DNA of 64,000 bases from Bremia lactucae (lineage: Eukaryota; Oomycota; Peronosporomycetes; Peronosporales; Peronosporaceae), in the NCBI RefSeq assembly GCF_004359215.1, contig NC_090619.1:6424870-6488869 (forward strand). Reading direction: 5' to 3'. Every line of letters starts with the position of its first letter. Within the stretch, counting starts at the first letter, position 1. Shown piece after piece: positions 3,952-63,309 of the stretch. The position numbers were made by a program, and so were the translations under genes. The notes beneath the pieces were generated by a model. It was not told the DNA's origin and ran no database searches. It saw only the letters and a program-made list of their open reading frames with translations.

Positions 3952-3966
3952 CCACTCCCCCTTTTA
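3952..3966 (-). other. polypurine tract, element U
   Basis: Minus strand TAAAAGGGGGAGTGG immediately upstream of the 3' LTR, the expected plus-strand primer of an LTR element. The equivalent in element M is at 45587-45603. Confidence 0.7.
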
Positions 3967-4082: not shown

Positions 4083-5238
4083 ATGCCACCTAAAAGGGCC
4101 ATTGTTGGTGGGTCGTGCGAAGACGCCCACTCAACCTCGCATCAAACGCACGCGTCGCGTTGTCGTGCTGGCCGCGTCCAATGCCTATGTCGAAACGCCG
4201 ACAGCTATTGCTGCTGTCGCATTAACGGGGCTAAAGGATCCATCCCACTTTGTCAGTGAGAATGCTGATCCGTCGCTCGTTCTCGACTACAAGAAGTCGA
4301 CACCGTTGCCGTCACCTCATAGTAGTGATGCGAACAACGAGCTCATGAGGAAGAATGATGGCGCATTACTGCCCATCGAAACTTCTCTCATGGCTCACAA
4401 CATGGAGACAGCAACATTAACGAATGCTGTATCGTCGTCTGTGCTGGATAGCGCAGCGACAGGTAATCAGAGCGCTGCCTAAAAGGCGCAGCCGCTTCTT
4501 CGTTGGGTAACACCACAACACCTTATGTTCAGACTGTTATCCATAGTGGTTCTGACATAGAGGATTCTGAGTCTAAAGCTCCGCCGACGACACGTGAACG
4601 TGCTCAGTCGGTGTCACAAGCCGATTGTTTAGAACGTGGCTATGTGAGGGGTGGCATATCACTGATGCCCCCTCCATCTAAATGGCCTCGTTTAAACGGG
4701 CCAAGAGCGTCGCTCCTAGAGCGCGCTCTTCTAGACGCACAAAGTTATTATGGCGTCTTTAAGTCATGGAGAGCTCAGGGAAAATCGCTTGAGCGTATTT
4801 TACCGATCCCGATCGTGTTGCATTCAGATGAAACGTCCGACCAATACGAGACGAAATTCTTGCGCCGCATTCATCCGCATTCCGATGCGATGAAACAGCG
4901 GTTGCAGCGAATTAATTTCGCCCGCTTGCGTGTGAAAGAAATCATGGGCGGTACTGTACCCCCTTTTCTTCTCACCAAACTGTTTCTGCTAGTCCATTTG
5001 AGACTAGCGAAGAGGCCACAGCTGGTGCTCCTTTTCATAGGCAGCCACCAAGCCGGGCACATCAATACGAAGGGTATCGATCGGTTCCCAAGAGTCGAAA
5101 CTCTTCGGGTAACCTTTCCATTGGACGAGGATCTAATACATTTGCCTCACGGAGCGGTGGGCAAGCAACCTTCCAACACGAAAGCGTTGATTCCCACCCG
5201 CATCCATCAGTGCAGGCGGCGCCCGATAGGAGTGGCGA
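4083..5238 (+). pseudogene. antisense ORF of Gypsy family 3 (element U), broken and gap-truncated
   Basis: Runs opposite to pol. Start ATG at 4083 (MPPKR), the same start as in element M (45721). Compared with M it has a 2-nt loss near 4115 and a 1-nt loss near 4483. Where M is shifted (near 46675), U keeps the correct frame. The predicted protein is rich in Ser/Thr/Pro and acidic stretches (HSGSDIEDSESKAPPTTRER), then has a basic amphipathic segment (LRRIHPHSDAMKQRLQRINF). Few long minus-strand frames compete over 4083-4870, so the open frame is not a mirror of a sense gene there. The right part overlaps the sense chromodomain and then enters the gap. The function is unknown. Confidence 0.6.
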
Positions 5239-6935: not shown

Positions 6936-8214
6936 ATGGAATCGTAACCCGTGCGCGTAGCCTGTGAAGCCGCAAATCTGGCAGCTACACGGCTCAGTAT
7001 AGCTGCCGCAGATGTGAATGTTTCAGTGGACGCTAATGCGTCTACTGTGGGGAGTTTGTCCTCTCCTACTACAATTGGAGGTTACTGGCACGCGTGCGCA
7101 TCATCGTCCGACTCGGTGGCAATGTTAAGGCCTCCGGTTCACCCGGGGCCAGTCCGTCGAACCTACGGGTTTTAACTTGACAGCGAAAGAGGTCATATCG
7201 ACGTTGTTTAACTTCTCGTCATACCCTTTTGGTGCGGAGTCATCTTATGATGACTCCATGGACGATGATAACCCTGGTGTTGCCAGAGTTTATCACCAGA
7301 AACGAAGTGATCGTAAAGTTACTTCGGTGAGAATACTACTACTGGTTCTAGTATGCACATTCAGGGACGGAAGATGCTAAGGATCACTCCGAGAGTAACG
7401 TTAGCATGATCGCTAACATGAACAAACGGGAGAGGGACCGCAATTATTTGCGGTTCGTTCCCAAAAAGAAACCCTGGTTGCCATTTTCGAGCAACATAAC
7501 TAGTTGGTCTGGTATGACCAACGACCGCTACAAAATTTCGTAATTCGACTTATCGAGGCTTCTCAAATCAGGTGACGACGAAACGGTATTCTTCATCAAT
7601 GCCTTTTTTTCTAACATCGAAGGTACACATGCAAGCAGGCAAAGGATGTAACTCCTTTGTTCAAGCTTAGGAAGCATTCGTTGCGCAAAGCCTAGGCCAC
7701 GAGGCCTCGCTTGACAAACTGGAAAATTTCCGCGACCGGCTTGTAAAACGGACCGTACTTGGTGCACGTTACAAGCTGCATCATCTCTCGAAAAAGGAAG
7801 GGTTACCTTGCCTCTCGTCGGGTGACCCATGTAACTGCTATTTTAAGGAAGCAGGCCATGCTCCAAAGGAGGTATATTTTCTTAAAGGTTACTTTTTGAA
7901 GGACGTGCGTCTCTTGTGAGACGCGCTATGGGATTGAGAACATTTAATCCTTTTACGAGCGCTTCCCACGCTCGTTCTCTGATGGCCCTCTGTGCAAGAG
8001 GATGGTTCTCGATTTACTGTCTTCACGAGACCCGTAACGTCCATCATCAGCTGAATTCAAGGTTCCCAGCTATCATGCGAGGGTGGATACCCTCGCCAAA
8101 GATTGAGGTAACTCTTTAGACCCCCCTTCACCCACGATGGTTCAAGAAGCGATCAACTCGGAAACACTTCTCACCACTCAAATCCGCCACAGGATGTGGA
8201 GGAGAAATAAAATC
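6936..8214 (+). pseudogene. antisense ORF, family 2 (element D), broken
   Basis: Start region ATG at 6936 is followed by a stop within four codons, but the family-2 N-terminus is recognisable (VRVAREAAKLAAARLSAA pattern). Across frames it continues with acidic SSYDDSMDDDN, MTNDRYK, a block TDRTxxGARYKLHHLSRK followed by LPCLSSGDPCNC, then AGHAPKE. This matches K (37460-39141) and S (minus strand from 63309), and in the KLHRLSR...LPCL block also family 1. Its right end overlaps the sense chromodomain and stops at the inversion joint at 8214/8215. It is dead in this copy; the conserved pattern is the reason to annotate it. Confidence 0.55.
8028..8122 (-). pseudogene. chromodomain of element D pol, one stop
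   Basis: The minus strand reads SYLNLWRGYPPSHDSWEP, stop, IQLMMDV, the core of a chromodomain of the kind found at the C-terminus of chromoviral integrases. It sits between the linker (now inverted away) and the 3' LTR. A single stop replaces the Arg codon of the EPRSQL motif. Confidence 0.7.
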
Positions 8215-13640: not shown

Positions 13641-13642
13641 CT

Positions 13643-18216: not shown

Positions 18217-18336
18217 TTCACCCCTCCCTTAAACGACAATCACTCTGACTGTCATTGGGAAGAGTGGTCACTATGTGACCACTTAATTTAAAAATGATGT
18301 TGATTGTTCAGAACCATCATTTTTAATTCCATCGCA

Positions 18337-19893
18337 TGAAAAATCAATTCATGCGGGGTCTTGGTAGTGCGTCGCCCGCGGCTGCGTGAACTGCAGCCGC
18401 GGGCGACGCATTATTGTCTCGTGCGGCAGACATTTCGTCTGCCGTAGTGTCATCTTCTTCCGCAACTCTAAATATTGCGGGTGCACGTGGTGATACACCA
18501 CGTGAATACGACCCCTCTTTGGAGGTCGACTACGAATGCGAGTCGGACGAAATGGCCGTATCGAGGAGAAGAGAACAGTCGGCTGATCATCGTCAGGCGG
18601 CTGACTATGAGCCTTCAAATGAGCTGGCTCATTCGAGTAGACGTGCTGGTAGCATTCGCTACAGCATGTTCGGTTTCTCATCACCAGCACCGTCTCCCGT
18701 GCCGTCACCCGCACATATTTCTGCGTTTGGTGATGACGATGGCGTAAGCCATCGTGATAAAAGTTCATGTGGTACCCCTGCTTCAGTGGGTACCAATCAG
18801 GGAGTCGTAGACACTAAAATGTCTCGTTTTGCCACCGAGAAGAAGCCGTGGCTTTTGCCCAAACAGCTCATGAATAGCTTGTCTGGAGAGACGATTCCTC
18901 ACACTAAATATCTTTATCTGTTGCGAGAAAGCTACATGGCCTTGATCCCAGCGCGAAGAACTTTCGCGCTGATAAAGATTTTTATATTGATGTTTTTTAA
19001 GCTTCGACGGTATAGTGGCCACAATAAGCGAATTGAAGTCTCGCTTATGCAAGCCTGGAGCGCGTTCATTCGCAATGTCGAAGACATTTGGACGCGAAGC
19101 CTGGCTCTAAATACTAAACGCGATTCGCGTTAGGTTTGAGAAACGAACTCCAACCGGTGCAAGGTATAAACTGCATCAGTTGTCACGTGAGGCAGGACTT
19201 ACATGCCTCACGTGGCGTAACTATCGTCCGTGTTGTGTTGACAATAAGAAACAAGTAAAAGGGGATGTCTATTCCATTTCTTCGTCCTGGGGAAGGGCTC
19301 GCATCTCTATCGAGATGCGCGATGCGATTGACATTTTCCGATCGATTTACATGCGCCAGGGGCGCGTGTTTTCGGATGGGTCTCGTCATACTGACAGAAT
19401 AGGTCCTCAACGTCAACAATCAGCTGGGAACGAGGCTTCCAACTGTCATGTGAAGGTGGATAACCGCGCCAGCGAACAAGATAACTCGTTTGCTGCCCCT
19501 TCACATCACGGTGGTTTTGAATACGTCCCACAAGGCGAAAACTAGATCCGACCCATGTGTCGGATCTATCAACAAACTCCATCGCTTCCTCCATGATTTG
19601 GAGAAGCAGACGGTGAGGCTCACCATATCGAACGGTTGAAAGACCGTTCGAAGAGTGCGTACTCCATGTTGGAGTACGAACGGAAATATCACGCTCTACG
19701 TGATGAGCTGTTTTCCGCTCATCGCGGTTTCGAGGATCTTCGGACCCGACATGAGGATCTCCAGATTAAACATGAGAATCTGGTTCGTGACCACAAGAAT
19801 CTTTTCGGGATTCTTGAAAAGGGTGGTCAGATTCGTCCTCGGAAGAAACCGCGTACTAATGGTACGGGCGGAGCCGACCAACGTAAAATGTAG
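18337..19893 (+). pseudogene. antisense ORF, family 1 (element B), broken
   Basis: Family start ATG at 18337. A fold-back (18368-18410) puts a stop soon after. The long frame 18414-19133 (239 codons) is open: Ser-rich SSAVVSSSSAT, acidic DYECESDEM, Arg-rich RRREQSADHRQ, then SIRYSMFG and a Pro/Ser repeat SPAPSPVPSPAH. It next has LMQAWSAFIRN, shifts frame, then LHQLSREAGLTCLTW and CC (19165-19235), then RDAIDIFRSIYMRQGRVFSD. The last part (19636-19893) is a coiled coil with a basic patch RPRKKPR and ends QRKM at a TAG. It overlaps the sense chromodomain at 19400-19560. Confidence 0.6.
18368..18410. repeat. fold-back inverted repeat, 18-bp arms
   Basis: TGCGTCGCCCGCGGCTGC (18368-18385) is the exact reverse complement of 18393-18410 with a 7-nt loop. 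Element C, at the same site (25375-25420), has only the right arm; the left arm replaces unrelated sequence there. Confidence 0.9.
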
Positions 19894-24816: not shown

Positions 24817-25232
24817 TGTAACGGGACACTGCCGACTCGTACTGCTTCAGTGCAAGTGGTGCCATGTCACTTCACGTACACTAATACGTACAAAGAAAGA
24901 CTCTCTTTAAAACACTTGCGTTAAAGAGGGTTATCAGTAAACTGCATTTAATATAATTAAGCTCTTCTGTTTCTATCTATTTAATATTAGCTTAGTTATA
25001 TACTAATACAAAACATGTAATGAAGTCTTATTTAACTCTCTCTTCGCACGCGTCCAGTGCTGACTGGACAGCGGAGCAAGTGAATATAATGGCCTATAAT
25101 ATTTGCCAATGGATAAGCTTTCCGAATATTACTATGTAAAGTAATATTCTCCAAATATTATCTATCTTGAAGATAATATATTAACTAACAACTTTTAAGT
25201 GTTATTATCATGAAACGATACACCCCGTTACA
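24817..25232 (-). repeat. 3' LTR of element C, 416 bp
   Basis: TGTAACGGGACAC to CACCCCGTTACA. It is followed (plus) by CACCCCTCCCTTAAACG, whose minus strand is the purine tract. It lacks the first of the two U5 hairpins present in the other family-1 LTRs, and is diverged from the 5' LTR, so the insertion is old. Confidence 0.85.
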
Positions 25233-25349
25233 TCACCCCTCCCTTAAACGACAATCACTCAGACTGTCATTGAATAGAGTGGTCACTATGAGACCACTTA
25301 ATTAAAAACAATGTTGATTGGTCAGAACCATCATTTTCAATTCTATCGC

Positions 25350-26860
25350 ATGGTAAGCGAGTCCATGCGGTCAGCGAATCGTGCGGAATCTTCGACTGCG
25401 GTACATGCAGCCGCGGGCGCCGCATTATTGTCTCTTGCGGCAGACATTTCGCCTGGTAGTATCATCTTCTGCCGCAACAATATATGTTGCGGGTTCACGT
25501 GGTGAATCACCACGTGAGTTCGCCCCTCTTTGGCGGTCGACTATGATTGCGAGTCGGACGAGATGACCGACTCGGGAAGAGCGAAACAGTCGCCTTTGTG
25601 GTACACCTGCTCCAGTGAGTACCACGCAGGGGAGTGCAGACGACAATATATCTCGTCTTGCCCCTGAGTTGAAGCCGAGGCTTTTCCCGAACGGCTAGTC
25701 AGTAGCTTGTCTGGAGAGACTTGTCCTCACAATAAATCACTCCTTTTTATTGCGATAAAGCTACATGGCCTTGATCCCAGCGCGATCCCAGCGCGAAGAA
25801 CTTTCGCGCTGAGAAAGATTTTATCTCGATGCTTTTCTTAAGCATCGATGGTACAGTGGCAACAACAAACGGGCTAAAATCTCGTTGATGCAAGCCTGGA
25901 GCGCGTTCATTCGCAATGTCAAAGACATTGGACGCGAAGCCTGGCTTCAAAGACTTAACGCGATTCTCGTTAAGTTTGAGGAACGAACTTCAACCGGTGC
26001 AAGATGTAAATTGCATCGGCTGTCTCGTGAGGCAAGACTTCCATGTCTCACGTGGGGTGATCCCTATCCGTGTTGTGTAGACAACACGAAACGAGTGAAA
26101 GGGGATGAGTATTCCCTCTCTTCGCCCTGGGGAAGGGCTCGCATCTCTATCGAGATGCGCGATGCGATTGACGTCTTGCAATGGATTTACATGTGCCAGG
26201 GGCGCGTGTTTTCCGATAAACCTTCTGATTAATCGGATGGGACTCGACATACTGACGGACGAGGCCTTCAACATTAACAATCAGCTGGGAACGAGGCTCC
26301 CAGCTGTCATGTGAAGGTGGATAACCGCGCCAGCGAACAAGATAACACATTCGCTGCCCCTTCACATTACGGTGGTTTTGGATACGTTCCGCAAGGAAAC
26401 GTTGACCACCGTGGGAACCCAACAATGGTTGTGGCGGAGCAGGGAAAATTAGATCTGACCCATGTGTCGGATCTAGAGTCGAAGATCGACAAATTCGATC
26501 GCTTCTTCCATGTATTGGAGGAGGGTCTTGATCACGAGCGCAGTAAGCGTCACTCGTTGGGACAGACGGTGCAGGCTCACCGTATCGAACGGTTGGAAGA
26601 CCGTTCGAAAAGTGCGTACTCAATGTTGGAGTACGAACGGAGTGTCACGCTCTCCGTGATGACCTGTCGTCAGCTCATCGCGGATTCGAGGCTCTTCGGA
26701 CCCGACATAAGAATCTCCAGATTCAGGATGAGAATCTGATTCTTTTAGGGTTTCCTAAAAAGGGTAGTCAGATCCGTCCTCTGAAGAAACCGCGTTCTGA
26801 TGGTACGGGCCGAGTCGACCAACGAAAAACGTAGGATGCTTTCGCATCCTTCGTGGTAAT
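25350..26860 (+). pseudogene. antisense ORF, family 1 (element C), broken
   Basis: Start ATG at 25350 (MVSESMRSANRAESS). It is open until a small deletion near 25455, and lacks about 200 bp near 25595 relative to element B. The 115-codon frame 25885-26232 contains the conserved core GREAWLQRLNA, CKLHRLSREARLPCLTWGDP, then CC, then RARISIEMRDAI. After a frame change, 26311-26739 gives NRASEQDN, then a coiled-coil segment (LESKIDKFDRFFHVLEE, ERSKRHSLGQTVQAHRIERL). It overlaps the sense chromodomain (26236-26440) antisense. The region 25350-26230 lies beyond the sense stop at 26147 or nearly so. No database family is assigned. Confidence 0.6.
26147..26623 (-). pseudogene. pol: C-terminal chromodomain of element C pol
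   Basis: A 158-codon open frame. After a linker it reads FLAERIQNHRNVKG, then YLVRWRGYPPSHDSWEPRSQL, then IVNVEGLVRQY: a full chromodomain with the conserved aromatic positions (Y, W, W). In chromoviruses this tail is known to guide integration to chromatin marks. It overlaps the plus-strand antisense frame for its whole length. Confidence 0.85.
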
Positions 26861-31968: not shown

Positions 31969-32745
31969 CTGGATCCGAAGATCCTCGAAATCGCGATGAG
32001 CTGACGACAGCTCGTCACGAAGAGCGTGATACTTCCGTTTGTACTCCAACATTGAGTAAGCACTTTTCGAACAGTCTTCCAACCGTTTCATACCGTGAGT
32101 CTGCACCGTCTGTTCCAACGAGTGACGCTTGCCGCGCTCGCGATCAAGACCCTCCTCCAATACAGTGAGGAAGTGGTCGAGCTTGTCGATCTTCGACTCT
32201 AGATTCGACACATAAGCCGGAACTTTTTTCCCTCTTCCACCACAACCATTGGTGGATTCCCGCGGTGGTCAACGTTTCCTTGTGGAACGCATCGTAAGCT
32301 ACTGTTATGTGAAGGGGCAGCGAACGAATTGTCTTGTTTGCTGGCGCGGTTATCCACCTTTGCGAAGGCACGGGAGACGGTGCTGGCGATGGGTAATCAT
32401 CCTCATCATCGGAACCAAACATGCTATAGCGAACGCTGTCAGCACGACTATCCGATTGAGCCCTATCATACGAAGGCTTATAGTCAGTCGCCTGACGACG
32501 TTCAGGCGACTGTTTCACTCTCCCCGAGTCGGCCATTTCGTCCGCATTCATAGTCGACCGCTAAAGAGGGGTCGGACTCACGTGGTGACTCACTACGTGC
32601 CCCGCAACATTTAGTGTTGCGGGAGAAGATGATACTACGGCAGATGAAATGTCGGCCGCAAGAGACAATAATGCGTCACCCGTGTTTGCATGTACCACAG
32701 CCGAAGGTTCCGCACTATTCGCATACCGCATGAACTTGTTAACAA
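31888..32745 (-). pseudogene. antisense ORF, family 1 (element G), broken
   Basis: Mirror of B and C, here on the minus strand because G is on the plus strand. The family start codon is ATT (near 32752) instead of ATG. 32551-32144 reads MADSGRVKQSPERRQATDY, DSRADSVRYSMFGSDDEDDY and SPAPSPVPS, then jumps by deletion to the coiled-coil part. 32211-31888 reads NLESKIDKLDHFLTVLEEG, KRHSLEQTVQTHGMKRLED, HALRDELSSAHRDFEDL. The middle Cys block is deleted. Confidence 0.6.
32240..32345 (+). pseudogene. pol: chromodomain of element G, truncated
   Basis: GGQRFLVERIVSYCYVKGQRTN is followed by CLVCWRGYPP, then the frame leaves the domain because of a deletion. Linker sequence precedes it. Confidence 0.65.
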
Positions 32746-32862
32746 TGCGATAAAATTGAAAATGATGGTTTTAATTAATCACCATCGTTTTCACTTAAGT
32801 GATCGTATAGTGACCACTCTATTCAATGACAGTCAGAGTGATTGTCGTTTACGAGGGGGCGA

Positions 32863-37459: not shown

Positions 37460-39141
37460 ATGGTAACGAAACCCGTGCGCGTCGCCTGAGAGGCAGCAAA
37501 GCTGGCAGCTGCACGGCTCAGTGCAGCTGCCAACGATGCAAATGTTTCAGTAAACGCAAATGCGTCTTAATACGGGGAAAGTCACATCCTACTCCAATTT
37601 GAGGTGATTGGCTGCTACTCCCATTGCAGGTGACAGTGACAAGTCACCTGCTACTCCTATTTTAGGTGACTGGGCCGAGCCGGTGTCATCGTCCGACTCG
37701 GTGGCAGCTGTCATGGCTGTCGGATGAACCGGAGCCATGTTTGGTGAACCTACGGGTTCTAACGTGGCAACTAAACAGGTGATGACGAGGTTGTTTGATG
37801 CCCTTTTGGTGCGGAGTCATCTTGTGGTGACTCCATGGACGATGCTAATTCTGGTGATGTTAGAATGCATTACCAGGAACGAAGTGATCGTAAAGGTCAC
37901 TTCGGTAAGCTTGCTGCTGCTAATGCTAGTATGCATCACCCGGGATGGACTAATTCCAAGGATCACTCCGAGAGTAATGTTAGCGTTATGCTAACATGAG
38001 CCAACGCGAGAGGGACCGCAATTTTTTGGCAGCTTGTTCCCGAAAAGAAGCCTAAGTTGCCATCTAAGGGTAACTTAACTCGTTGTTCTGGAATGACCAA
38101 CGACCAATACCATATCCTGCTATTCGACTCATTCAGGCTTCCCAAGCTTGGTGAGGATGAAACGGAATTCTTCGTCGATGCCTTTTTCCGGCATCGTTGA
38201 TACGCATGTAAGCGAGCAAAGGATGTCACCCCTTTGCTCCAAGCTTAGGATGCATTTGTACAAAATGTGCAAAGCACAGGACGCAAGATCTAGCTTGACA
38301 AACTGGATGATTTTCGTGAACGGTTCGATAAACGGGCCGTAGTCGGTGCACGCTTCAAGCTGCACCGTTTGTCTAGAACTGCACAGTTACGTTGCATCTC
38401 GTGGGGGTCTCATGTCCATGCTGTTGTAATGGTGCAGCTCATGCCCTAAAAAGGCATACTCCCTTAAAGACCCTCATTGGAGGACGCTCATCCTTGTGAA
38501 ATGCAGGAATTGAGGACCTCCATCCTTTAACGACCGCGGGAGTGCTCGTTCGTTGATGGATCCTGCTTCGAGGAGAGGATGGGTGTTGTCGTACTGTCGT
38601 AGGAGATCCGGCACGTCCATCATCAGTTAAGAACGAGGTTTCGAACTATCATGAGAGGGTGGATACCCTCGCCACCGAATGAGATAACTCGTTTAAACCC
38701 TTTTGCCTTACGATGGTTCGAGAAGCGTTCAACAAGAAAACGCTTTTTACCACCCGAATCCGTCAATGGATGTGGAGGTGGAAAGAATATCAGTTCGCCT
38801 TGTTCGCCACGTCCGAGTCAACAATCGTGACTTAGGTAACACCCTCCATTATTTAAGGGAGGACATTGATCACGAGCGATCCCGTCGTTGGGAGTTTGCA
38901 GTGACGATCGATAATGTTTCTCGTGACCAATTGAATCCGTGCGCAAGTTGCAACTGATTAACTGGCGAACGAACGGAGACATTGGTCACTTCAAAACAAG
39001 TTGATGGCAGCTCGTAAAACGATCTCATTCTTGGATGATGTAGTGGAACGTCTAGTTCGTGAGAGCCAGACTCTGTTTCGAGACTATCATGCTTTAGCTC
39101 GGGACCATCAGGCTTTGGCAGACGCCTTACATCGTTCCTAG
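37460..39141 (+). pseudogene. antisense ORF, family 2 (element K), broken
   Basis: Start ATG 37460 (MVTKPVRVA, stop, AAKLAAARLSAAA). Pieces in all three frames follow: acidic/Ser-rich (AESSCGDSMDDANSGD, ANASMHHPG), FGMTNDQYHILLFDSFRLPK, DETEFFVDAFF, then LDKLDDFRERFDKRAVVGAR followed by FKLHRLSRTAQL and W (38290-38410). Next come HRDLGNTLHYLREDIDHERSRR-like sequence and a coiled coil ending VRESQTLFRDYHALARDHQ. It overlaps the minus-strand chromodomain at 38580-38760. Breaks are numerous; the order of blocks equals S and D. Confidence 0.58.
38580..38760 (-). pseudogene. pol: chromodomain of element K pol
   Basis: Minus strand: SYLIRWRGYPPSHDSSKPRS, stop, LMMDVPDLLRQYD. A clear chromodomain with a Trp-to-Ser change in the DSWEP motif and one stop. 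Confidence 0.72.
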
Positions 39142-40708: not shown

Positions 40709-41161
40709 TTATTGTTGCGATAGTGGGCCCAGGTTCTGTGTTGGTTGTTGCATCAGTGAGCTTATCTCCACTGTTGTTTGCGCATCCGGCTCAATATGAT
40801 GCCGGCGCGGAAGCGAATCAGCGACGACATTAAGACGTCTTGGTTTGTATTCCACAGAGAAGCTGTACTCCGCGGAGAAAGACGACGAACTTGCCATTCT
40901 TTGCGAGAGGTGTGGACTGCTTACGGCCGTGAGTAAAGACGCATGGTTCGTACAAACAATGGAAGGTCTATCTCCCAAGAGATAGACCCTTAGCTTAGCC
41001 AGTGAATTAAACATGGCAAGGAGTTCTTTGTCATGAACTGGACAATTGCGTTCAGCTGGCTGAAGCTGACGTGACTGATAGCAGATGACGCGCTCTTTGC
41101 CGTCTCTGTCATGTTGCATTAACGCACAGCCGAATGCAAAATCGCTGGCGTCACAGACCAC
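40709..41161 (-). pseudogene. pol: RNase H of element K
   Basis: An open 150-codon frame: VCDASDFAFGCALMQ (Asp), HDKELLAMFNSLAKLR (Glu), IVCTNHASLL (the third acidic residue, normally YTD, reads CTN), VVADSLPRRHH (Asp). A member of the retroelement RNase H family with one catalytic Asp lost. Confidence 0.83.
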
Positions 41162-45064: not shown

Positions 45065-45603
45065 TGTAAGCGGGCACGTCTTAATCCGGCCACGCTCTAC
45101 TTAGACACACCATCTAGCACAGCGAGGATACGGTTAGACCGTCATCTTTTGCGTGCAGTTTGTGGGTGCCTTAGCGACCTCACCCAACGCACCAAGAAGT
45201 TTGGATAAGTCTCGTCACGGGAGCGGTACTCCGGCTTCTCGTGCGCACTTACCAAATAGGAAGTAGTTTTCAGACTGATTTATATTTAATCACATTAAAG
45301 ATCAATACCTATTTTAACCAATCAAAATGTCATCTCTGTAGATAACACTTATATTTATTGCAAGCGTATCTTTCTAGATACCTCGCGTAACGGATGACGC
45401 TAGCCGTCATACCTCCTAATGTGAATGCACATATGTGCATTACATACACAAGGGTTGGTCACAAATGTGAACCACACCCGAGTGGTGGGTCTAATTACTT
45501 TATATAAGTAATTGACCATCCCCTTAAGTACACCAATTGTACTTAATGGGGACTGTGTTACATTAGGGCAACTTTAGCCCGTTGCACCACCCCCCCCCTT
45601 TAA
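45065..45603 (-). repeat. 3' LTR and purine tract of element M
   Basis: LTR 45065-45586 (522 bp; plus TGTAAGCGGGCAC ... GCCCGTTGCA). The adjoining C-run 45587-45603 is, on the minus strand, a 9- to 10-G polypurine tract. Confidence 0.82.
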
Positions 45604-45720
45604 GAACAAATTTACATTTTAAAATTCGTCAAAGAGGAAGGAGGAACTGCGGGTTGCTTAACGTGCCGCTAGTTCTCTCATTCACTCTAGCGACCTGAGT
45701 TTCCATACACGGCGCCAAAG

Positions 45721-47225
45721 ATGCCACCTTAAAGGGGTAATGTTGGTGGGTCGTCTGCGAAGACGCCCACTCAACCTCGCACTAAGCGCACACGCCGCGT
45801 TAACACGCCGGCAGCGTCCAATGCCTTAGTCGAAACGCCGACGGCTACTGCTGCTGCCGCCTTTACGGAGCTTAAGGATCCATCCCACTTTCACAGTGAG
45901 GATGTTGATCCGTCGCTCATTGTCGACTACAATGAGTCAACACCGTTGCCGTCACCTCATAGTAGTGATGCGGACAACGAGCTCACGAGGAAGGACGATG
46001 GCGCATTATTGCGCATCCAAACTTCTCTCATGGCTCACAACATAGAGACAGCAACATTTACGAATGCTGTCTCGTCGTCTGCGCTAGATAACGCAGCGAC
46101 GATTAATGAGAGCGCTGCCCATAAAGGCGCAGCCGCTTTTTGGTTGGGTAAAACGACAACGCCTTATGATCAGACCATTATCCATAGTGGTTCTGACATA
46201 GAGGATTCGGAGTCTGAAGCTCCGCCGACGACACGTGAACGTGCTCAGTCGGTGTCACAAGCCGATTGTTTAGAACGTGGGTATGTGAGGGGTGGCATAT
46301 CACTGCTGCCCCCTCCATCTATATGGCCTCGTTTAAACGGGCCAAGAGCGTCGCTCCTAGAGCGCGCTCTTCTAGACGCACATAATTATTATGGCGTCTT
46401 TCAATCATGGAGGGCTCAGGGAAAAATGCTTGGGCGTATTTTTCCGATCCCGGTCGTGTTGCATTCAAATGAAACGCCCGACCAATACGAGGTGAAATTC
46501 TTGCGCCGTCTTCATCCGCATTCCGATGCCATAAAGCAGCGGTTGCAACGGATTAATTTCGCTCGCTTGCGCGTGAAAAAAATTATGGGCGGTATTGTAC
46601 CCCCTGTTTCTTTTCACAACGCTGCTTCTGCTAGTCCATTTGAGACTAGCGAAGAGGCCTCAGCTGGTGCTCCTTTCATATGCAGCCACCAAGCCGGGCA
46701 CATCAATACGTACGGTATCGATCGGTTCCCAAGAGTCCAAACGCTTCGGGTAACCTTTTACATTGGACGAGATCTGATAACAATGCCTCACGGAGCGGTG
46801 GGCAATCAACCTTCCAACACGAAAGCGTTGATTCCCACCCGCATCCATCAAGGCAGGCGGCGCCCGATAGGAGTGGCGATCTCGCCCAATTACTTGCGGC
46901 TTCTATACCTTCGTCCGTTCAGTCACAGGCGTTAAGGGTTGCTGCACGACGTATTGCGGATCTTGAGAGTCAAGTCTCACGACTGACCTCGGATCTCGTT
47001 GATGTCCGAGCGAAGGCTCGTCAGGGTTATGAACGCCTGAAGACTCGCTTGGACCTTTTCGAGAGGATAATGCTGAGGGATCCGCGTTATTCGCGTGATG
47101 TCCCTCGTTCTCCGAGTCCTCTTCGTGGTAAGAGGAGTCTATCGGTTGAAAGTTTTTCACCTTCACCGTCCCCCTCATTCGGACGACGCTCGACTCAGAG
47201 TCGGCGTCCCCATCGGTCTCCTTAG
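45721..47225 (+). pseudogene. antisense ORF, family 3 (element M), best-preserved copy
   Basis: From ATG 45721 the frame is open to 46935 except for one TAA at codon 4 (AAA in element U). One frameshift near 46675 then leads to 46680-47225, ending at TAG. This gives about 500 codons in all. Regions: basic N-terminus with RTKRTRRV; Thr/Ala-rich; SPHSSDADNELTRKDDGALL; SGSDIEDSESEAPPTTRERA; LERALLDAHNYYGVFQSWRA; KFLRRLHPHSDAIKQRLQRI; a part opposite the chromodomain; coiled coil RVAARRIADLESQVSRLTSD to LKTRLDLFERIM (46935-47075); and a tail rich in RSPSP and SRRPHRS. No minus-strand frame of note competes over 45721-46660. It looks nuclear by composition (inference). No known family recognised. 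Confidence 0.68.
46660..46851 (-). pseudogene. pol: chromodomain of element M pol
   Basis: FRVGRLIAHRSVRHCYQIS, then VKGYPKRLDSWEPIDTVRID, then VPGLVAAYERST: a chromodomain with W and aromatic positions retained. It overlaps the antisense frame completely. Confidence 0.75.
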
Positions 47226-47534
47226 CCGGATGGGGGTATGTGACCTCATTTGGGTCTACATGCCGTTTCAGACGACCCACGTAAAATACGGGGTGCGTCT
47301 TCATATACGGGGAAGGGTGAGCCTATAGCTAAGGTCTCCAACCTCTTCTACCACCGTAAAGAGCCCTATTAAACGCGGCAACAACTTCGTAGTACCTCCA
47401 GGTAGTACAGAAATTGCATTCTTAGGTAGGGTAGCAGTACCTAATAGTACTTTTTCACCCACTCTAAAGCGTTCATTGTTTTTGCGACCATTTCGGTCCG
47501 CATATTCTTTTTGCTTGTCCTGTGCGCTTGCCAT
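46903..47534 (-). pseudogene. pol: GPY/F module and linker of element M
   Basis: 47534-47301: QDKQKEYADRNGRKNNERF, VGEKVLLGTATLPKNAI, LLPRLIGLFTVVEEVGDLSY. This is the GPY/F motif with PRLIGLF in place of PRFIGPF. 47304-46903 continues HPVFYVGRLKRHVDP and an acidic/Ser linker. On the opposite strand the linker is the antisense coiled coil. Confidence 0.8.
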
Positions 47535-47619
47535 TGCGTCACGGAGTTTTTGTGTGATAATCGCTCATCCACAAAGCGTTAAGCCTCGCTCACGCTTTTA
47601 ACTCGCCTATGACACCGCC

Positions 47620-48248
47620 GAGACGTCGGTCATAGGACGTTATTTTCTTGACCACTGCTAAACTGGCAGGGTCACTCGGGTAAGTTTCAGTCGTTGAGAT
47701 GATACCCTAGCGGGTCATCGTCATATTGACAAACCTATGTCCCTCTTTCGCACCGAGCATAGTGAGGAGCCCTCCCCCACTAAGACTCGGGCTGCGCACA
47801 AACGAGACTGGCGTCCGAGAATGGCGCAGTCCGTTAATATAAAACGGTGTCACACCCGTACTGGCGTGGCCACTGTTATTTATAGCAAACTCCACAAAGG
47901 GCAATCGCTTGCTCCATTCTTTTGGAGTTGCTATAGTGCGTAAAGACATCCGCCACGACCCGATTGGCACGTTCTGTTTGGCCATCGGTCTAAGGATCAT
48001 CTGTGGAGCTTGCTACTTAGCAGCTCGAACACATGTCGCCAAAAACCAGACGTAAAACGTGGATCTCGGTCCGGTACTATGGACTCGTGCATCCCGTGAA
48101 GTCGGTAAACATGATCCAGAAACAAGAGAGCTGCCTCCTTGCCTGTGATCGATATTTTACATGGTGCTAAATGCACCATTTTGCTCAGTCTGTCTACAAA
48201 GACGTCTAGCCCCGTCCGATTCTTATGATCGGGCGGTATGCGAAACAT
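47620..48248 (-). pseudogene. pol: integrase core of element M
   Basis: 48248-47997: MFRIPPDHKNRTGLDVFVDR, LSKMVHLAPCKISITGKEAA, VPDRDPRFTSGFWRHVFELL (Asp). After shifts come TDGQTERANRVVADV (Glu, about 47970-47940) and LPFVEFAINNSGHASTGVTP. The DDE residues are visible but in different frames. Confidence 0.8.
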
Positions 48249-48544: not shown

Positions 48545-49159
48545 TAAAGCGGTTTAGCTTAGTTTTCAGGTGCGACGGAAGGGAAACCTTTCGTCCACCG
48601 AAGTGATCCAACAGCAGACGACAGTGGTCGTCCTGACTGTAGCTCTCTTTTATCTCAAAGGCCAATGAGCTCGTCACGTGGCATGCCTTCATGGCTGCCA
48701 ACGTTGACGGCTAAAATTGTGTTTTCGCACTAGACACACTTTCCTGGTGTCTAACCTCGAAGTCTGGTCTGCGCGATAAAGCGTCAGCCAAGACATTCGA
48801 CTTACCCGGCTTATATTCAACTTTGAAATTAAATTCAGAGAAGAATGTGAGCCATCTTGCCATTCTAGGCGAGAGGTGCGGTGAGTTTATTGCGGTCCGC
48901 AGTGATGCGTGATCCGTATAAACCACAAATGGTTCGGTGCCCAATAGGTGCACACGAAACTTGACAAGAGCATACTTTATTGAAAGCAGCTCTTTGTCAT
49001 GCACAGGTAATTCAGTTCCGCGGCTTTTAATAGCCGGGACTGATAAGAGATGACACGGTCAACGCCGTCGTCATCCTTCTGCATGAGCGCGCTGCCGATT
49101 GCAAAATTACTTGCATCGCAGACGACGCTAAAGGGCTTATCCGCGTCTGGCAATGCCAA
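48545..49159 (-). pseudogene. pol: RNase H of element M and following tether
   Basis: 49159-48977: LPDADKPFSVVCDASNFAIG (DASNF; the first Asp of the DxSxF motif is present). 49004-48711: MHDKELLSIKYALVKF (Glu), VVYTDHASLR (Asp), SNVLADALSRRPDFEV (Asp). 48701-48545: MKACHVTSSLAFEIKESYSQ, LLDHFGGRKVSLPSHLKTKL. One frameshift separates the first two blocks; otherwise the domain is well kept. Confidence 0.85.
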
Positions 49160-49467
49160 GACCGGTGCCTCTACAAAATATTGCCATACTGATGTGAACG
49201 CATCTTCTTGTTCTTTTAACCAAACCCATTCTGTATCTTTTTAAGGAGATCAGATAATGGTTTAGTTTGCTCCGCATATTTCTTGCTATACTTATGCAAG
49301 TTATTAGCGAGCCCTAGGAATTGGCGCGAATCCTTCACATGCCGTGGGATCGGCCATTCCTTTACCAATTTTACTCGTCTAGGTCTGCTCGTACACCATG
49401 TGTACCAACGATGCAGCCCAGTACAGGTATCTCAGGGACCCCTATGACGCACTTTTGCAAGTTGACG
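49160..49467 (-). pseudogene. pol: RT thumb of element M
   Basis: Minus strand: NLQKCVIGVPEIPVLGCIVG, THGVRADLDE, WPIPRHVKDSRQFLGLANNL, HKYSKKYAEQTKPLSDLL. It ends where Copia sequence begins at about 49467. Confidence 0.75.
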
Positions 49468-50269
49468 TATCAATGTGCTTGATGCGTTTGTAGAATGTCG
49501 GATTCTCGGCCAATGCTATTGAGCCTTGGTTGTCCTCATAGATCTTGACCGCATCGCTTCTCGACATCTCAACGAGCTCACACAGAAATGCCTTTAGCCA
49601 CACCGCTTCTTGTGCTACTTCTGGCAACGCCATGTGTTCGACTTCCGTAGACGAAGTGCCACAGTGCGCTGCTTCTTGCTTTTCCAGCTGATACATCCGC
49701 CGCTCATCAAAAATGCCACTGGTGCTTCTTCTTGACTCTGTGTCTCCAGCCCAGTCTGCATCCGTGTAGCCTTGAAGTCCCTTGTCACTTGATGCTTGAA
49801 ACTTGATACCATGCAATTTGTGCCTTGTATATACCTGAATACTCTCGTGAGTGCTTGCTAGTGTGTCGGACATAAAACTGTAGCAAATTGGCTGATCACT
49901 GCTACTACCGCAGCGAGATCGGGGCGTGTATCGACCGTAAAGTACATCAGGTAGCCGACAGCATTTCTATATGGTACCCCAGCCATGGACTCGTTGTGTT
50001 TGCAACCTCCTTCGCACATAAGCTTTTTTTTGTCAGCTTGAGTCCCGGATCCTGTGTATTCGTGCATAGTAGGGCCCGAGAACGGGCTGAGCAATAGAGT
50101 CGCACAAGCGTCATTTAGACGCTGTGTTGTAGAGTGATATTGGAGTATGTCTCCACTCTGGACAAGTTAGCTGATATCATGACGAAGCCTATTCCAGCGA
50201 CGCAGTTTTGTGTGCTTCGGAGCAAACTTGGTATTCAAGCGTCTCCCTAATCGTCGAGTCGAGTGAGAG

Positions 50270-50516
50270 TGTTAGCTAGGAAGCGACTCGACTACATCAA
50301 GATAGTACCCATAATTACCATTATATACCGGTAATGACGTCACAGTGTGACGTCATGGGGATGACGTTAGTAGATGACGTCAGTAGTTTCTAGAAGGTTC
50401 TATGAGCTATGATTGGAGAATCAATGATTGGCTTCGAGGTAGCTATAGGTTGCGAACTAAGGACCTTAATATATTCACTTTGCATTTCGCCAAGTAGTGC
50501 TCACTTGACCTTAGCA
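50270..50516 (+). repeat. Copia LTR, 247 bp, with TGACGTCA cluster
   Basis: Preceded by GTCGAGTCGAGTGAGAG (purine-rich, 50253-50269). Starts TGTTAGCTAGG, ends near TTAGCA. It aligns in reverse with 52226-52452 and 55554-55728. TGACGTCA occurs at 50335-50342, 50348-50355 and 50375-50382, plus a near match at 50361. Confidence 0.7.
50335..50382. promoter_or_regulatory. cluster of CRE-like palindromes in the Copia LTR
   Basis: Three perfect TGACGTCA octamers and one ATGACGTT within 48 bp. TGACGTCA is the classical site for CREB/ATF-type bZIP proteins. Copies of the cluster persist in the other Copia LTRs (52356-52376, 55637-55684). A role as promoter or enhancer is inferred. Confidence 0.55.
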
Positions 50517-52225
50517 TAAGTCAAACAGTGGGAGCTGTGCGATGGTTGCGCACCTGGCAAATAAACGCGAGTGAGCTTCATGCAAAAGTCGCCTCATCAC
50601 GCAAATAAGCTGCTAGAAGTCATTCAGAGTGACGTGAGCGGTCCTATGCAGTCAGCGACTTTTAGCGGTAAGTGGTACTTCGTCACATTTACAGATGAGT
50701 ACTCGCACTTTACCAGTGTTCTTGTTACGAAGCAAGTCGGAGGTCTCAAACAAGCTCGCCAAGTTTGTTGCGTTCACTGAGACTTAGACCGGCGGAGTTG
50801 TCAAAACTCTTCGTTGAGACAACGGTGGTGAAAACACTTCGAGCGTATTGGCCAAGTTCTGCAAGCGTCGTGGTATTGAGCAAAAATTCACGCTACCCTA
50901 CGCTCGCAACTGAATAGGGGGGGGGGGCGAACGCATGAATCGTACACTCGTGAATTGCGCAAGATGTATGCTTGAGCTCGCTGGACTGCCGAAATCGTAT
51001 TGGGGCGAAGCATTCATGACCGCTACCTTCCTTCGCTACCGCTGTCCAACGCGAGGTATTGTATGGAAAAGTCACTATATCAGGTTTGGACCGGGAGGAA
51101 ACCAGCGCTGGCAAATCTAAAGGTGTTTGGCTGCCATGCATTTGTAACAGTTCCAAAGGAAAAACGTCGCAAGATTGACTCTCGAACGGTACGCTGTCCA
51201 TTTCTCGGCTACTCGAAGCATGAAAAAGCATATCGTTTCGAAGAAAGATTGAGAATGGCCGTGTACTAGTGAGTTTGATGCAAAATTTATGGAAGACATG
51301 TTTGACAGTGAGAGATGCGTCCGCCAGAATAGCGCGATTGTTGTTCAAGAGGCTGATGAATTGGCCGATGACGACTCTCCACAACTCGAAGAAACTGATC
51401 AAGAGAATGAAGAATGTGAGCAGAGCGAAGAAATGGAGCCTGGCACCAAGCGGCACGAAAGGACTCAATCGCTCGAAAAAGCAGCTGAAATTCCAACGTC
51501 TAAGCGACACAGTAGATACCAATCAGTAAAAGAAATGTCTGCTACGGCACACGATTTTGAGGCTGCGTACGTTGTGGATTCAGTGGGAGAAATGCCGACC
51601 ACGTTCAAGTCGGCGATGGAATCCAGCGACGCAGCCAAGTGGCAAGAAGTATGCAACTCGGAAATGGAATCGCTTCAAAAGAACAAGACATGGACGCTTG
51701 TGCCGCTACCAAAAGGGCGCAAGCCAATAGGCAATCGGTAAGTGTTTCGCGTCAAAGAAAATCAAGACGGTATAGTGGAGCGACACAAGGCGCGTCTAGT
51801 GGCTAAAGGCTTTGCACAGAAGTTTGGCATTGACTACGAAGAAACGTTTGCGCCTGTGGCCAAGTTTACATCTATTCGGATTCTGCTCAGTTTGGCTGCC
51901 AAGTACGGACTTACTGTCCATCGGATAGACGTAAAGACAGCGTACCTCAACGGCCAGCTCGACGAGGACATCAACATGGCGCAGCCAGATGGCTTCAATG
52001 ATGCAATCAATCCGGACTATGTGTGCAAACTAGAACGGTCAGTGTACGTGCTGAAGCAGTCGCCTCGCATGTGGAAGAAGCCCCTCGATGATTTTATGCT
52101 AGGGCTCGAGTTCAAGAAATGCGAATCTGGCCACTGCGTCTAAATGAAGCGTGGTAGGCAAGATATGATCTTTGTTGCGCTTTACGTCGATGACTTAATT
52201 TTGGCTAGCAGTAATGAAAAGGTCA
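50517..52225 (+). pseudogene. pol: Ty1/Copia pol fragment P: integrase and reverse transcriptase
   Basis: 50520-50790: LCDGCAPGK and MQKSPHHANKLLEVIQSDVS, VTFTDEYSHF (pre-integrase CxxC and the first integrase Asp). 50800-51290: DNGGENTS, an 11-G run at 50917 that disrupts ERMNRTLVNCARCMLELAGL, then LANLKVFGCHAFVTVPKEKR. 51289-51741: acidic linker, AMESSDAAKWQEVCNSEMES, NKTWTLVPLPKGRKPIGNR, then TAA in place of Trp. 51742-52143: [62 protein letters not shown] (RT catalytic) follows at 52180-52215 after a TAA. Gag and protease are missing. Confidence 0.85.
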
Positions 52226-52452
52226 AGTGAGCACTAGTTGGCAAAATGCAAAGTAAATATATTAAAGGACTTAGTTCGCAAACCTATTGCTTGTTACCTC
52301 TAAGCCAACCATTACTTCTAGCCAATTAGCGCTTCTGAAATATTCTAGAAGCTTCTGACGTCATCAACTGACGTCATTACCGGTATCTGCCGGTACCCGC
52401 CTTTGGCCTGCTTGCTGCATGAGACGCCTTTTTCACAGCGTCCTTAAGAACA
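52226..52452 (-). repeat. 3' LTR of Copia element Q
   Basis: Sense start TGTTCTTAAGG just after the purine-rich GTCGAGTCGAGTGGGAG. TGACGTCA at 52356-52363 and 52369-52376. Ends in the GGTCAAGTGAGCAC complement near 52226. Confidence 0.7.
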
Positions 52453-52459
52453 CTCCCAC

Positions 52460-53476: not shown

Positions 53477-53576
53477 TATGCTAGGACTGGAATTTAAGAA
53501 GTGTGAATCCGATCACTGCATCTAAATGTAGATGCAGTGATCGGATTCACACTTCTTGAATTCCAGTCCCAGCATA
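53477..53576. repeat. fold-back inverted repeat, 47-bp arms, inside Copia RT
   Basis: Left arm 53478-53524 and right arm 53529-53575 are near-perfect reverse complements (two mismatches) with a 4-nt loop. Both arms encode MLGLEFKKCESDHCI, one on each strand. Copia P (52100-52170) has a single copy and different sequence where Q has the extra arm. Confidence 0.93.
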
Positions 53577-53970: not shown

Positions 53971-53976
53971 AAGTGT

Positions 53977-55432: not shown

Positions 55433-55553
55433 AGTAGTTACAGGTGCTGTTGGCCTTGACCGGTTTTTGGCGTCCCTTACGCCGACCGTTGTCCGTTGTC
55501 ATAAACGCTTGTCCTTGCCCGTGGCGGCTCCATCGAAGCCGCCACCTTGTTCC

Positions 55554-60217: not shown

Positions 60218-60249
60218 ATAGTTTCTCAACAGATCAAAAGACAACTCGC

Positions 60250-61660: not shown

Positions 61661-63309
61661 TTCACCAAAGCTTCATGGTTCCGAGCCAAAGCCGTATCTT
61701 CTCGGTACCGACTCTGATTGTCTTGAATCAGACGATCCACTCATTTTTTCTCCAAGGGAATGATCTTCTGACGAGCTGTCACCATCTCGTTTTGAAGGAA
61801 CTGATGTGTCCTCTCGTTCGCCAGTTGATCCGTCGCAACCTGCACACAATTTTAATCTACCAACTGGTCACGAGAAACATTATTAGCCATCACCGCTAAC
61901 TCGCGGCGACGGGATCGCTCGTGATCAGAATCCTTTCTCAAAAAATAAAGGGCGTGATCCGAATCATGATGTTGATTCGGGTTCGTCAAACGAGGCGAAC
62001 CCGACCCCCCCCCTCCACATCCATTGACGGATTCGAGTGGTGAGAAGCATTTTCTTGTTGAAAGCTTTTCGAACCACCCAGAGGTAAATAGAGTTCGAAC
62101 GAGATATCTCGTTCGTTGGCGAGGGTATCCACCCTCACATGATAGCTAGGAGCCTCGTTCCCAATTGATGTTGGACGTTCCAGGTTTCGTCTTGCAGTAC
62201 GAACAGCCCCATCCTCCTTGACAGAAGGTCCATCGGAGAACGAGCGCTTTCCGCGCTCGTAATAGGATTGGAGGTTCTCAATCCCTTCACGCATCTCGTA
62301 AGAGATGAGCGTTCTCCAATGAAGATCTTTAAGAAATATGCTTTCTTTTGGGGCATGACCTGCACCCTTAAAACAGCAGGAGCATGGGTCCCCCCACGAG
62401 AGGCAAGGAATCCCTGTCTCCTAAGACAAACAGTACAGCTTATATCATGCACCGACTACGGTCTGTTTCTCGAACCGCTCACGGAAAGCATTTAGCTTGT
62501 CAAGCCAGACCTCACGGCCTATTTTTGTACATGCTGTATAAAAGCTGTCGAAGTTTAGCGCAAAGGTTTGACATCCTTTGTCAGCTTAGAGGAGTACCAC
62601 CGATGCCGGAAAAGGCATCGGTGAGGAATTTCGTCTCATCCTCACCGGGCATGTGAAACCTGGATGAGTTGAATAGCGGAATATGACATCGATCGTTGTT
62701 CATACAGACCAACGAATGAGGTTTCTCCTAGAGGGCAACCAAGGCCGATTTTCAGGAGCGAACCGCAACGTATTGCGATCCCTCTCGTGTTGGCTCATGT
62801 TAACGTCAACGTTAACTTAGCCCTTGGAGCGATCTCTAGAATCACTCCCTTCCTGGTGATGCAAACTATCACCACCAGCAGCACTCTTCCCCTCGCGACC
62901 ACTTAATTTTCTGGGTGACGCATGCTAACGTTACCAGAGTGGTCATCGCTCACGGAGTCATCGGATGATGACTCCTCACCAAAGAGGTTCGACGAGTCGA
63001 ATAACCTCGTCATCACCCCTCTAGTTGTCACGTTAGAACCTGAAGGCTTAACGGACTCGGCCCCGGGTGATCCAGCGGCCTTTACAGTAGACACTGAGTC
63101 CGGCGATGCCGGTGACTTGGTCCACTCACCTACAGTCGGTGTAGCAGATGACTTGTCATCGTCACCTCCAATGGGAGTAGGTGACGTATTCCCCGCAGTA
63201 GACGTATTAGCGTCCATTGATAAATTTCATTACCAACAGCTGCACTGTACCGTGCAGCTGTCAGCTTTGCGGCCTCACGGGCCACGCGCACAGACTTATT
63301 AGTCGCCAT
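61519..63309 (-). pseudogene. antisense ORF, family 2 (element S)
   Basis: Start ATG at 63309 (MATNKSVRVAREAAKLTAAR). A shift near 63220 leads to 63217-62903: TSTAGNTSPTPIGGDDDKSS, SGSNVTTRGVMTRLFDSSNL, FGEESSSDDSVSDDHS (acidic). The middle holds KLYxLSxxAQLPCLSWGDPC-type sequence (about 62480-62380). 62294-61986: REGIENLQSYYERGKRSFSD, ERPTSIGNEAPSYHVRVDTL, ANERDISFELYLPLGGSKSF. Coiled coil and basic end 62000-61519 (SDHERSRRRELAVMANNVSR; CSGEIRNRKKSRTDGTAE). It overlaps the plus-strand chromodomain. This is one of the least damaged family-2 copies. Confidence 0.62.
62036..62195 (+). pseudogene. pol: chromodomain of element S pol
   Basis: VESFSNHPEVNRVRTRYLVR, then WRGYPPSHDSWEPRSQL and MLDVPGFVLQYEQ: an intact chromodomain frame. 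The opposite strand of the same bases is the open antisense frame (62294-61986). Confidence 0.8.

What the first reader, a model, noticed from the sequence alone, without database searches (positions are those of the whole stretch)
45721..47225. Conserved antisense gene in three families of chromodomain Gypsy elements
Seen: in seven elements (U 4083, D 6936, B 18337, C 25350, G minus 32745, K 37460, M 45721, S minus 63309, and weakly J) a long open frame starts close to the 3' LTR on the strand opposite to pol and ends in the linker after GPY/F. Element M is open for about 400 codons apart from one stop, with no notable competing frame on the pol strand over 45721-46660. Order of protein features is similar: acidic/Ser-rich N-part, middle block, coiled coil, basic or RS-rich tail. 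Known: antisense genes exist in some retroviruses (for example HTLV-1 HBZ) and additional antisense ORFs are reported in some plant LTR elements. Inference: these elements carry a real antisense gene, transcribed from or near the 3' LTR. I know of no description for this group.
Basis: partly seen in the sequence, partly recalled or inferred. Interest (0 to 1): 0.88.

Follow-up and report, generated by a model that had tools for sequence, protein, structure and literature searches.

The report
Antisense gene in oomycete Gypsy retrotransposons
A family of jumping genes in an oomycete (water mould) genome carries a second gene on the opposite DNA strand next to its 3' end, and the pattern of mutations in many copies indicates that this backwards gene really encodes a protein, of unknown function.

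Summary
In element M the + strand, antisense to pol, is open from ATG 45721 to 47225, broken by a stop at codon 4 and a frameshift near 46,675. Region 45721-46641 has no open sense frame; over 70 copies only the antisense frame is open (1.33 stops per copy against 11.8-24.9). Variants shared by at least 10 copies are depleted of amino-acid changes relative to singletons (28N:26S against 536N:167S, p=2.6e-4). Opposite the pol linker (46911-47222) shared variants are mostly silent for the antisense protein (7N:12S) but not for pol (17N:3S). Homologues of 480-559 aa occur in public data, one from Peronospora effusa. The protein has a basic N-terminus, an acidic disordered part, a helical block, a coiled coil and an Arg/Ser-rich tail, and no Pfam match above cut-off. 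[quoted passage not shown] I found none described in oomycetes. So this is very probably a real gene, a new variant of a known kind. Transcription and function are untested; a nuclear regulator of the element is my best guess.

The parts
45065..45589 (-). 3' LTR of element M (525 bp, TG...CA)
   Evidence: Ends read from sequence; aligns to U 3426-3954 at 84%; an LTR hit within 1.1 kb upstream of the antisense frame in 66 of 70 fetched loci, near full length in 39
45590..45601 (-). polypurine tract (AAAGGGGGGGGG on the pol strand) next to the 3' LTR, consistent with the element's orientation
   Evidence: read from sequence; function inferred
45677..45687 (+). initiator-like motif (YTCANTY) 40-44 nt before the antisense ATG; weak
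   Evidence: match in 62 of 67 copies; before the starts I used none within 150 nt in B, C, K, S, one at -23 in D and at -14 in G
45721..46675 (+). antisense gene, first part (basic N-terminus, acidic/Ser-rich part, helical middle block); stop at codon 4, frameshift near the end
46676..47225 (+). antisense gene, second part (linker, coiled coil, RS/SP-rich tail), overlapping pol on the other strand
46660..46902 (-). sense pol: chromodomain-like C-terminus
   Evidence: by eye; Pfam gave no hit for this piece; the chromodomain of element C within 26147-26623 minus is hit with E=1.9e-12
46903..47322 (-). sense pol: linker between GPY/F and chromodomain, opposite the antisense coiled coil and tail
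   Evidence: open; no Pfam hit; shared variants unconstrained in this frame
47301..47564 (-). sense pol: integrase C-terminal SH3/GPY-F domain
   Evidence: Pfam SH3_Tf2-1 E=7.7e-7, 29.6 bits against cut-off 30
48711..49240 (-). sense pol: RNase H
   Evidence: Pfam RT_RNaseH, RT_RNaseH_2
4083..5236 (+). M-type antisense frame of element U (frames change along it; cut by an N run at 5239-5338)
18336..19237 (+). B-type antisense frame of element B (decayed)
   Evidence: tblastn with proteins
25178..26077 (+). B-type antisense frame of element C (decayed)
   Evidence: its pol is on minus (chromodomain E=1.9e-12; integrase core E=2.5e-6, below cut-off)
32393..32746 (-). B-type antisense N-terminal part of element G
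   Evidence: pol strand not shown
7650..7817 (+). middle block of the antisense frame of element D
   Evidence: P0015 tblastn E=1.5e-15; pol strand not shown
38030..38401 (+). middle block of the antisense frame of element K
   Evidence: P0015 tblastn E=3.1e-23; an RNase H on minus at 40709-41161
62397..62552 (-). middle block of the antisense frame of element S
   Evidence: P0015 tblastn E=5.3e-12; pol domains on plus at 59799-61656

Best explanation
The elements carry a genuine protein-coding antisense gene (about 480-500 codons in the M type) that starts about 130 nt inside the 3' LTR and runs back into pol, ending in the linker between the integrase GPY/F domain and the chromodomain. Supported by sequence: the open frame, purifying selection on it, and conserved full-length homologues. 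Inferred: it is read from a short antisense transcript that starts in or beside the 3' LTR, and its product is a nuclear, self-associating protein (basic N-terminus, disordered acidic part, helical block, coiled coil, Arg/Ser-rich tail) that acts on the element's own RNA or chromatin to regulate expression or counter host silencing. My confidence is about 0.9 for the coding gene and about 0.4 for the regulatory role; the score below is for the gene claim.
For: Only the antisense frame is open where pol does not code: 1.33 stops per copy against 11.8-24.9, 70 copies; few stops against shuffles in M. N/S by number of copies sharing a variant: 3.21 (1), 2.60 (2), 2.65 (3-4), 2.10 (5-9), 1.08 (10 or more), with codon positions 13/11/30 in the last class. 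Both halves of the region show it at >=10 (p=0.0056 and 0.011); region A plus overlap together p=2.8e-6. In 46911-47222 the antisense frame is constrained (7N:12S, p=0.0026) and the sense frame is not (17N:3S, p=0.42). In sense-only pol, 47301-47564, the method finds the pol frame (0N:5S, p=8e-4, threshold 8). Homologues of 480-559 aa, 41-74% identical to P0005 in the seven of alignment A3; the middle block is 120 residues in each of five compared, mean identity 0.60. LTR upstream and GPY/F downstream in 50 of 70 loci.
Against: No transcript, peptide or phenotype was examined. M is broken; 49 of 70 copies have at least one stop in region A and 3 of 70 loci hold an ATG-to-stop frame of 450 aa or more, though dead copies are expected. 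A wrong frame (-2) shows the same N/S shift because it shares third positions, but has 14.5 stops per copy in region A. Mirror openness does occur in pol: in 47301-47564 and 47707-47996 a plus-strand frame is about as open as pol (1.19 against 1.27 and 0.32 against 0.32 stops), and in the former it also shows 1N:4S, p=0.022; so openness opposite pol alone proves nothing, and the argument rests on region A and on the linker. Transitions only: p=0.066 at >=5, 0.0063 at >=10. At >=15 the second half of region A gives p=0.32 (13 variants). Several thresholds were looked at, and shared variants are treated as independent. Indels shared by 2-4 copies are mostly not multiples of three (0 of 3 in A, 2 of 15 in the overlap are). 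46680-46910 is uninformative (12 shared variants). Public proteins are selected for being open. The regulatory role rests on composition; AlphaFold confidence is low (pLDDT 50).
Confidence: 0.9

Rival explanations
1. The open antisense frame is a by-product of codon usage or constraint in pol on the other strand.
For: The second part (46676-47225) overlaps an open pol frame, and mirror-open plus-strand frames do occur opposite the integrase (47301-47564, 47707-47996).
Against: 45721-46641 has no open sense frame (11.8-15.8 stops per copy in the three minus frames), yet the antisense frame is open and constrained there. In the linker overlap the constraint follows the antisense frame, not pol.
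Confidence: 0.03
2. The antisense product is a structural or particle-associated protein (Gag-helper or chaperone-like) rather than a regulator.
For: A predicted coiled coil and charged regions would also suit an assembly protein.
Against: No Gag or nucleocapsid family among the Pfam matches and no zinc knuckle seen by eye; on the opposite strand it would need its own transcript. Not strong evidence.
Confidence: 0.2
3. What matters is the antisense RNA (dsRNA and small-RNA control), and the open frame is incidental.
For: Antisense transcripts of LTR elements may feed small-RNA silencing (review passages, PMC7264820); sense and antisense small RNAs map along abundant Phytophthora infestans Gypsy-type elements (passages, PMC3522703).
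Against: Frame-specific codon constraint and conserved protein length. An RNA role may exist in addition.
Confidence: 0.04
4. The gene is a separate element or captured host gene nested next to the 3' LTR in some copies, not part of the element.
Against: LTR upstream and GPY/F downstream in 50 of 70 loci; the frames interlock with pol over about 560 bp; an antisense frame at the 3' side of pol also occurs in C, K and S. Ancient capture remains possible as an origin.
Confidence: 0.05

Closest known systems
Antisense additional ORFs between pol and 3' LTR (aORF-3R) of plant elements: Grande gene23, RIRE2, Retand, PvRetro13 (PMC7264820, passages read)
   Same: Antisense ORF next to the 3' LTR, present in many copies, conserved between related elements, unknown function, suspected regulator
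   Different: Plants; in PMC11963269 (passages) 97% of clusters of recently active Retand elements carry a TRP28 domain, not found here; here the gene overlaps the chromodomain/linker end of pol by about 560 bp
brtn of Boty-like (BcGypsy1) elements of Botrytis cinerea (named in passages of PMC7264820 and PMC8365987; the original paper was not read)
   Same: Antisense gene in a Gypsy element of a filamentous plant-associated eukaryote
   Different: Sequence of brtn was not on hand, so homology is untested; fungus, not oomycete
HBZ of HTLV-1 (recalled; an HTLV antisense promoter inside the 3' LTR is mentioned in PMC7264820)
   Same: Antisense gene starting near the 3' LTR; acidic part plus coiled coil (HBZ domains recalled)
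   Different: No bZIP match in Pfam; no antisense transcript shown
Chronos, oomycete Gypsy elements with chromodomain (PMC5348765, passages and section 5 read)
   Same: Oomycete Gypsy elements with a chromodomain after integrase
   Different: Chronos is defined by a dual RNase H with an aRNH, not identified here; the word antisense has 0 occurrences in that paper's main text

Membership tests
Antisense aORF-3R elements (Grande, RIRE2, Retand, PvRetro13, Boty) | long ORF antisense to gag-pol between pol and the 3' LTR | tested here: met
   M: ORF starts about 130 nt from the 3' LTR; LTR upstream and GPY/F downstream in 50 of 70 loci; it also extends into pol
Antisense aORF-3R elements (Grande, RIRE2, Retand, PvRetro13, Boty) | present in many copies, not a one-off transduction | tested here: met
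   109 protein matches in the genome, a lower bound; 70 copies aligned
Retand lineage | TRP28 (PF04195) domain in the antisense ORF | tested here: not met
   no such match among the Pfam results
HBZ-type antisense genes | bZIP domain | tested here: not met
   the antisense proteins have only Pfam matches below the curated cut-off, none bZIP
HBZ-type antisense genes | antisense transcript from the 3' LTR | not testable with these tools
   no RNA data
Chronos | chromodomain at the 3' end of pol | tested here: met
   Chromo E=1.9e-12 in element C; in M by eye only, no Pfam hit
Chronos | dual RNase H (aRNH next to gRH) | tested here: inconclusive
   Pfam scan of selected pol pieces shows only RT_RNaseH types; pol was not scanned whole and no RT tree was built
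Boty brtn | sequence similarity to brtn | not tested
   no brtn sequence on hand

The most novel reading that the evidence does not exclude
Oomycete chromodomain Gypsy elements evolved, independently of retroviruses and of plant Tat-type elements, an antisense nuclear regulator whose coding needs dictate the sense strand: the C-terminal linker of pol is largely a passenger of the antisense coiled coil and RS tail, so one retroelement carries two interlocked genes in which the backwards one holds priority.
Probability: 0.35. Interest if true: 0.78.

Novelty: new variant of a known kind. Interest (0 to 1): 0.62.

Why it matters
If right, it extends antisense genes of LTR retrotransposons to oomycetes and to elements whose pol ends in a chromodomain, with codon-level evidence of selection. 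Because the gene overlaps pol in a phase where its third positions are pol's second positions, the two readings can be separated, and in the linker the antisense protein is the constrained one. A protein family found in Peronospora and Hyaloperonospora gives a testable entry to how these abundant elements regulate themselves or escape silencing.

Tried and rejected
Structure prediction: M-type P0005 on alignment A4 gave pLDDT 50 (helices 196-272, coiled coil 382-437), B-type P0015 gave 45; no fold search was run because such models give meaningless matches. PDB sequence search: one match at E=0.98. IMG/VR scan: 101 pattern matches, none confirmed. Profile comparison of M-type and B-type proteins: probability 25%, E=0.00075, 21 columns at a DPSL-VDY motif, so homology is not claimed. 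Promoter motif: an initiator-like match 40-44 nt before the ATG in 62 of 67 copies, but the copies are close kin, and before the starts I used B, C, K and S have none, D and G have one at -23 and -14; kept as a hint only. Indel lengths: 18 of 70 unique indels in region A are multiples of three, 0 of 3 at 2-4 copies, 1 of 1 at >=5; in the overlap 7 of 66, 2 of 15, 1 of 1: no support for coding, as expected for mostly dead copies. The leader 45602-45718 as a non-coding control had only 4-5 shared variants per frame and decides nothing. Weak Pfam matches such as RXLR (E=0.17, below cut-off) were taken as chance. The rows labelled 'A+B2' repeat region A and were not used.

Full report
WHAT IS THERE. 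The window lies in a 115.9-Mb genome in 220 contigs, unnamed; the named protein relatives point to an oomycete of the downy mildew group. Element M is a Gypsy element on the minus strand: 3' LTR 45065-45589 (TG...CA, 525 bp), polypurine tract 45590-45601, then, going up, a chromodomain-like end (by eye), linker, integrase C-terminal SH3/GPY-F (47301-47564, just below the Pfam cut-off) and RNase H (48711-49240). Above about 49,466 the pol reading gives way to Copia-like sequence (identified by eye). On the plus strand an ATG at 45721, about 130 nt from the LTR, opens a frame with a stop at codon 4 and a frameshift near 46,675; the continuation ends at 47225. The overlap with pol is about 560 bp.

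MORE THAN CHANCE. In M, region A (45721-46641) has 1 stop in the antisense frame and 12-24 in the other five; 5000 dinucleotide shuffles average 11.3 (minimum 1), and the longest open run (303 codons) exceeds all of 2000 shuffles (maximum 258). I aligned M with 69 further copies (loci L010-L078, none of these dropped); pairwise distance in region A has median 0.10, maximum 0.19. In region A the antisense frame has 1.33 stops per copy (21 of 70 with none); the other five have 11.8-24.9 and no copy has none. In the overlap (46680-47222) two frames are open, antisense (0.98 stops, 22 of 65 copies with none) and pol (1.32, 17 of 65); the others have 6.0-9.5.

SELECTION. Most copies look dead, so singletons approximate mutation without selection, while variants shared by many copies arose mainly in active ancestors. 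In region A, N/S in the antisense frame is 3.21 for singletons, 2.60 (2 copies), 2.65 (3-4), 2.10 (5-9) and 1.08 (10 or more; 28N:26S; codon positions 13/11/30), Fisher p=2.6e-4. The first cut I tried (5 or more) gave p=5.6e-4. Frames +1, +2, -0 and -1 show no shift at >=10; -2 shows one (p=2.9e-4) because its third positions coincide, but it carries 14.5 stops per copy. Transitions only: p=0.066 at >=5, p=0.0063 at >=10. Both halves of region A hold on their own at >=10 (p=0.0056, 0.011); at >=15 the first gives 0.014 and the second 0.32. In the linker overlap 46911-47222 the antisense frame has 7N:12S against 179:65 (p=0.0026), while pol's frame has 17N:3S against 176:60 (p=0.42), no constraint; here too -2 follows the antisense frame (p=5e-4) with 6.7 stops per copy. 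Over the whole overlap the antisense frame gives p=0.006, pol's p=1, and one wrong frame (+1) shifts the other way (p=0.034). The chromodomain stretch 46680-46910 has 12 shared variants and decides nothing. As positive control, sense-only 47301-47564 gives 0N:5S for pol (p=8e-4, threshold 8 copies); there a plus-strand frame that shares third positions is also nearly open (1.19 stops against 1.27) and shows 1N:4S (p=0.022), and at 47707-47996 a plus frame is as open as pol (0.32 each). So mirror openness opposite pol does occur, and the case rests on region A, where no sense frame is open, and on the linker, where the two readings are out of phase. Two further integrase pieces had 2 and 0 shared variants and are uninformative. 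Region A plus the whole overlap: p=2.8e-6. Shared variants are treated as independent events, which is an approximation.

RELATIVES. The M protein finds 14 proteins at E<=1e-3 (of 5938 candidates), one from Hyaloperonospora arabidopsidis (P0013). A profile of seven finds 24 (of 7994 scored): seven from Peronospora effusa (P0028, P0030-P0035), one from P. farinosa (P0029), the other 16 without organism; P0013 is not in that list. The five full-length ones I compared have 480-559 aa; in alignment A3 of seven, identity to P0005 is 41-74%. Among the five (P0003, P0005, P0007, P0008, P0028) the middle block (161-280) has 120 residues in each, mean identity 0.60; the coiled coil 0.64; the acidic part 0.41 with net charge -9 to -18; the tail is basic, 36-45% Ser+Pro. 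The middle block lies in the part without sense coding. B-type query 18414-19130 finds 13 proteins (of 477 candidates). P0015 of that set also matches D, K and S in the window and gives 133 matches in the genome (132 of 6836 candidates scored), among them eight rows with the same score (414.7 bits) and no stop. M-type and B-type share only a DPSL-VDY motif by profile comparison. The antisense proteins have no Pfam match above cut-off.

ONE UNIT. Of 70 loci, 66 have an LTR hit upstream of the antisense frame (39 near full length), 53 have GPY/F and 44 integrase DNA downstream within the fetched stretch, 50 have both LTR and GPY/F. Fetched stretches differ in length, so these are lower bounds. 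Of 70 loci 3 hold an ATG-to-stop frame of at least 450 aa and 16 of at least 300.

HOW IT MAY WORK. Supported: a protein-coding gene antisense to pol, under purifying selection. Inferred: expression from an antisense promoter near the 3' LTR. A weak initiator-like match lies 40-44 nt before the ATG; in P. infestans the high-confidence transcription start sites lie 32-144 nt (median 50) from the start codon and TCATTCT is called the most frequent INR form (PMC3599244, passages). Inferred from composition: nuclear (basic N-terminus), self-associating (coiled coil), nucleic-acid or splicing/export related (RS-rich tail). I favour a regulator of the element's own expression or an anti-silencing factor, about 0.4 together.

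KNOWN OR NEW. [quoted passage not shown] PMC11963269 (passages) reports TRP28 antisense ORFs in 97% of its Retand clusters. PMC6317226 (passages) counts extra ORFs in plant elements and distinguishes orientation. PMC8365987 (passages) mentions brtn. PMC5348765 (passages and section 5) describes oomycete Chronos with chromodomain, with 0 occurrences of 'antisense'. PMC3522703 (passages) concerns small RNAs. PMC6570648 (passages) was looked at for genome and repeat figures only, not for antisense genes. My ten searches were made; several listings were capped (for example 15 of 98 papers, 25 of 32, 12 of 14). Among the papers listed I recognised none, from title and abstract start, that describes an antisense gene of an oomycete element; the library lacks most subscription journals. 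So: a new variant of a known kind, with oomycete host, chromodomain elements, interlocked overlap with pol, and antisense priority in the linker as the new points.

Noticed in passing
window 8702-13891: Direct repeats at a constant spacing of 2542 bp, two pairs 100% identical (8702-9001 / 11244-11543; 10845-10988 / 13387-13530) and one at 63% (11146-11349 / 13688-13891); possibly a recent tandem duplication inside a Gypsy region.
   Followed up: no
window 20675-20974 and 27700-27999: Elements B and C are identical over 300 bp here but 86-96% identical in other repeat pairs nearby, which may reflect gene conversion or recombination between copies.
   Followed up: no
window about 49466-55900: Copia-like fragments (identified by eye) in both orientations and repeats between 49.5 and 55.7 kb; element M loses its pol reading at RT there.
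   Followed up: partly
window 47301-47564 and 47707-47996, + strand: Plus-strand frames opposite the integrase are about as open as pol itself over the copies; mirror effect of pol codons or a further antisense frame was not decided.
   Followed up: partly
genome rows: B-type antisense frames include eight rows with the same score and no stop over query residues 9-283, suggesting recent amplification; good material for a selection test.
   Followed up: no
P0029, P0031: Peronospora gene models of this family lack internal stretches that other members have, which may be mispredicted introns.
   Followed up: no
window 5239-5338: Run of 100 N cuts the antisense frame of element U.
   Followed up: no
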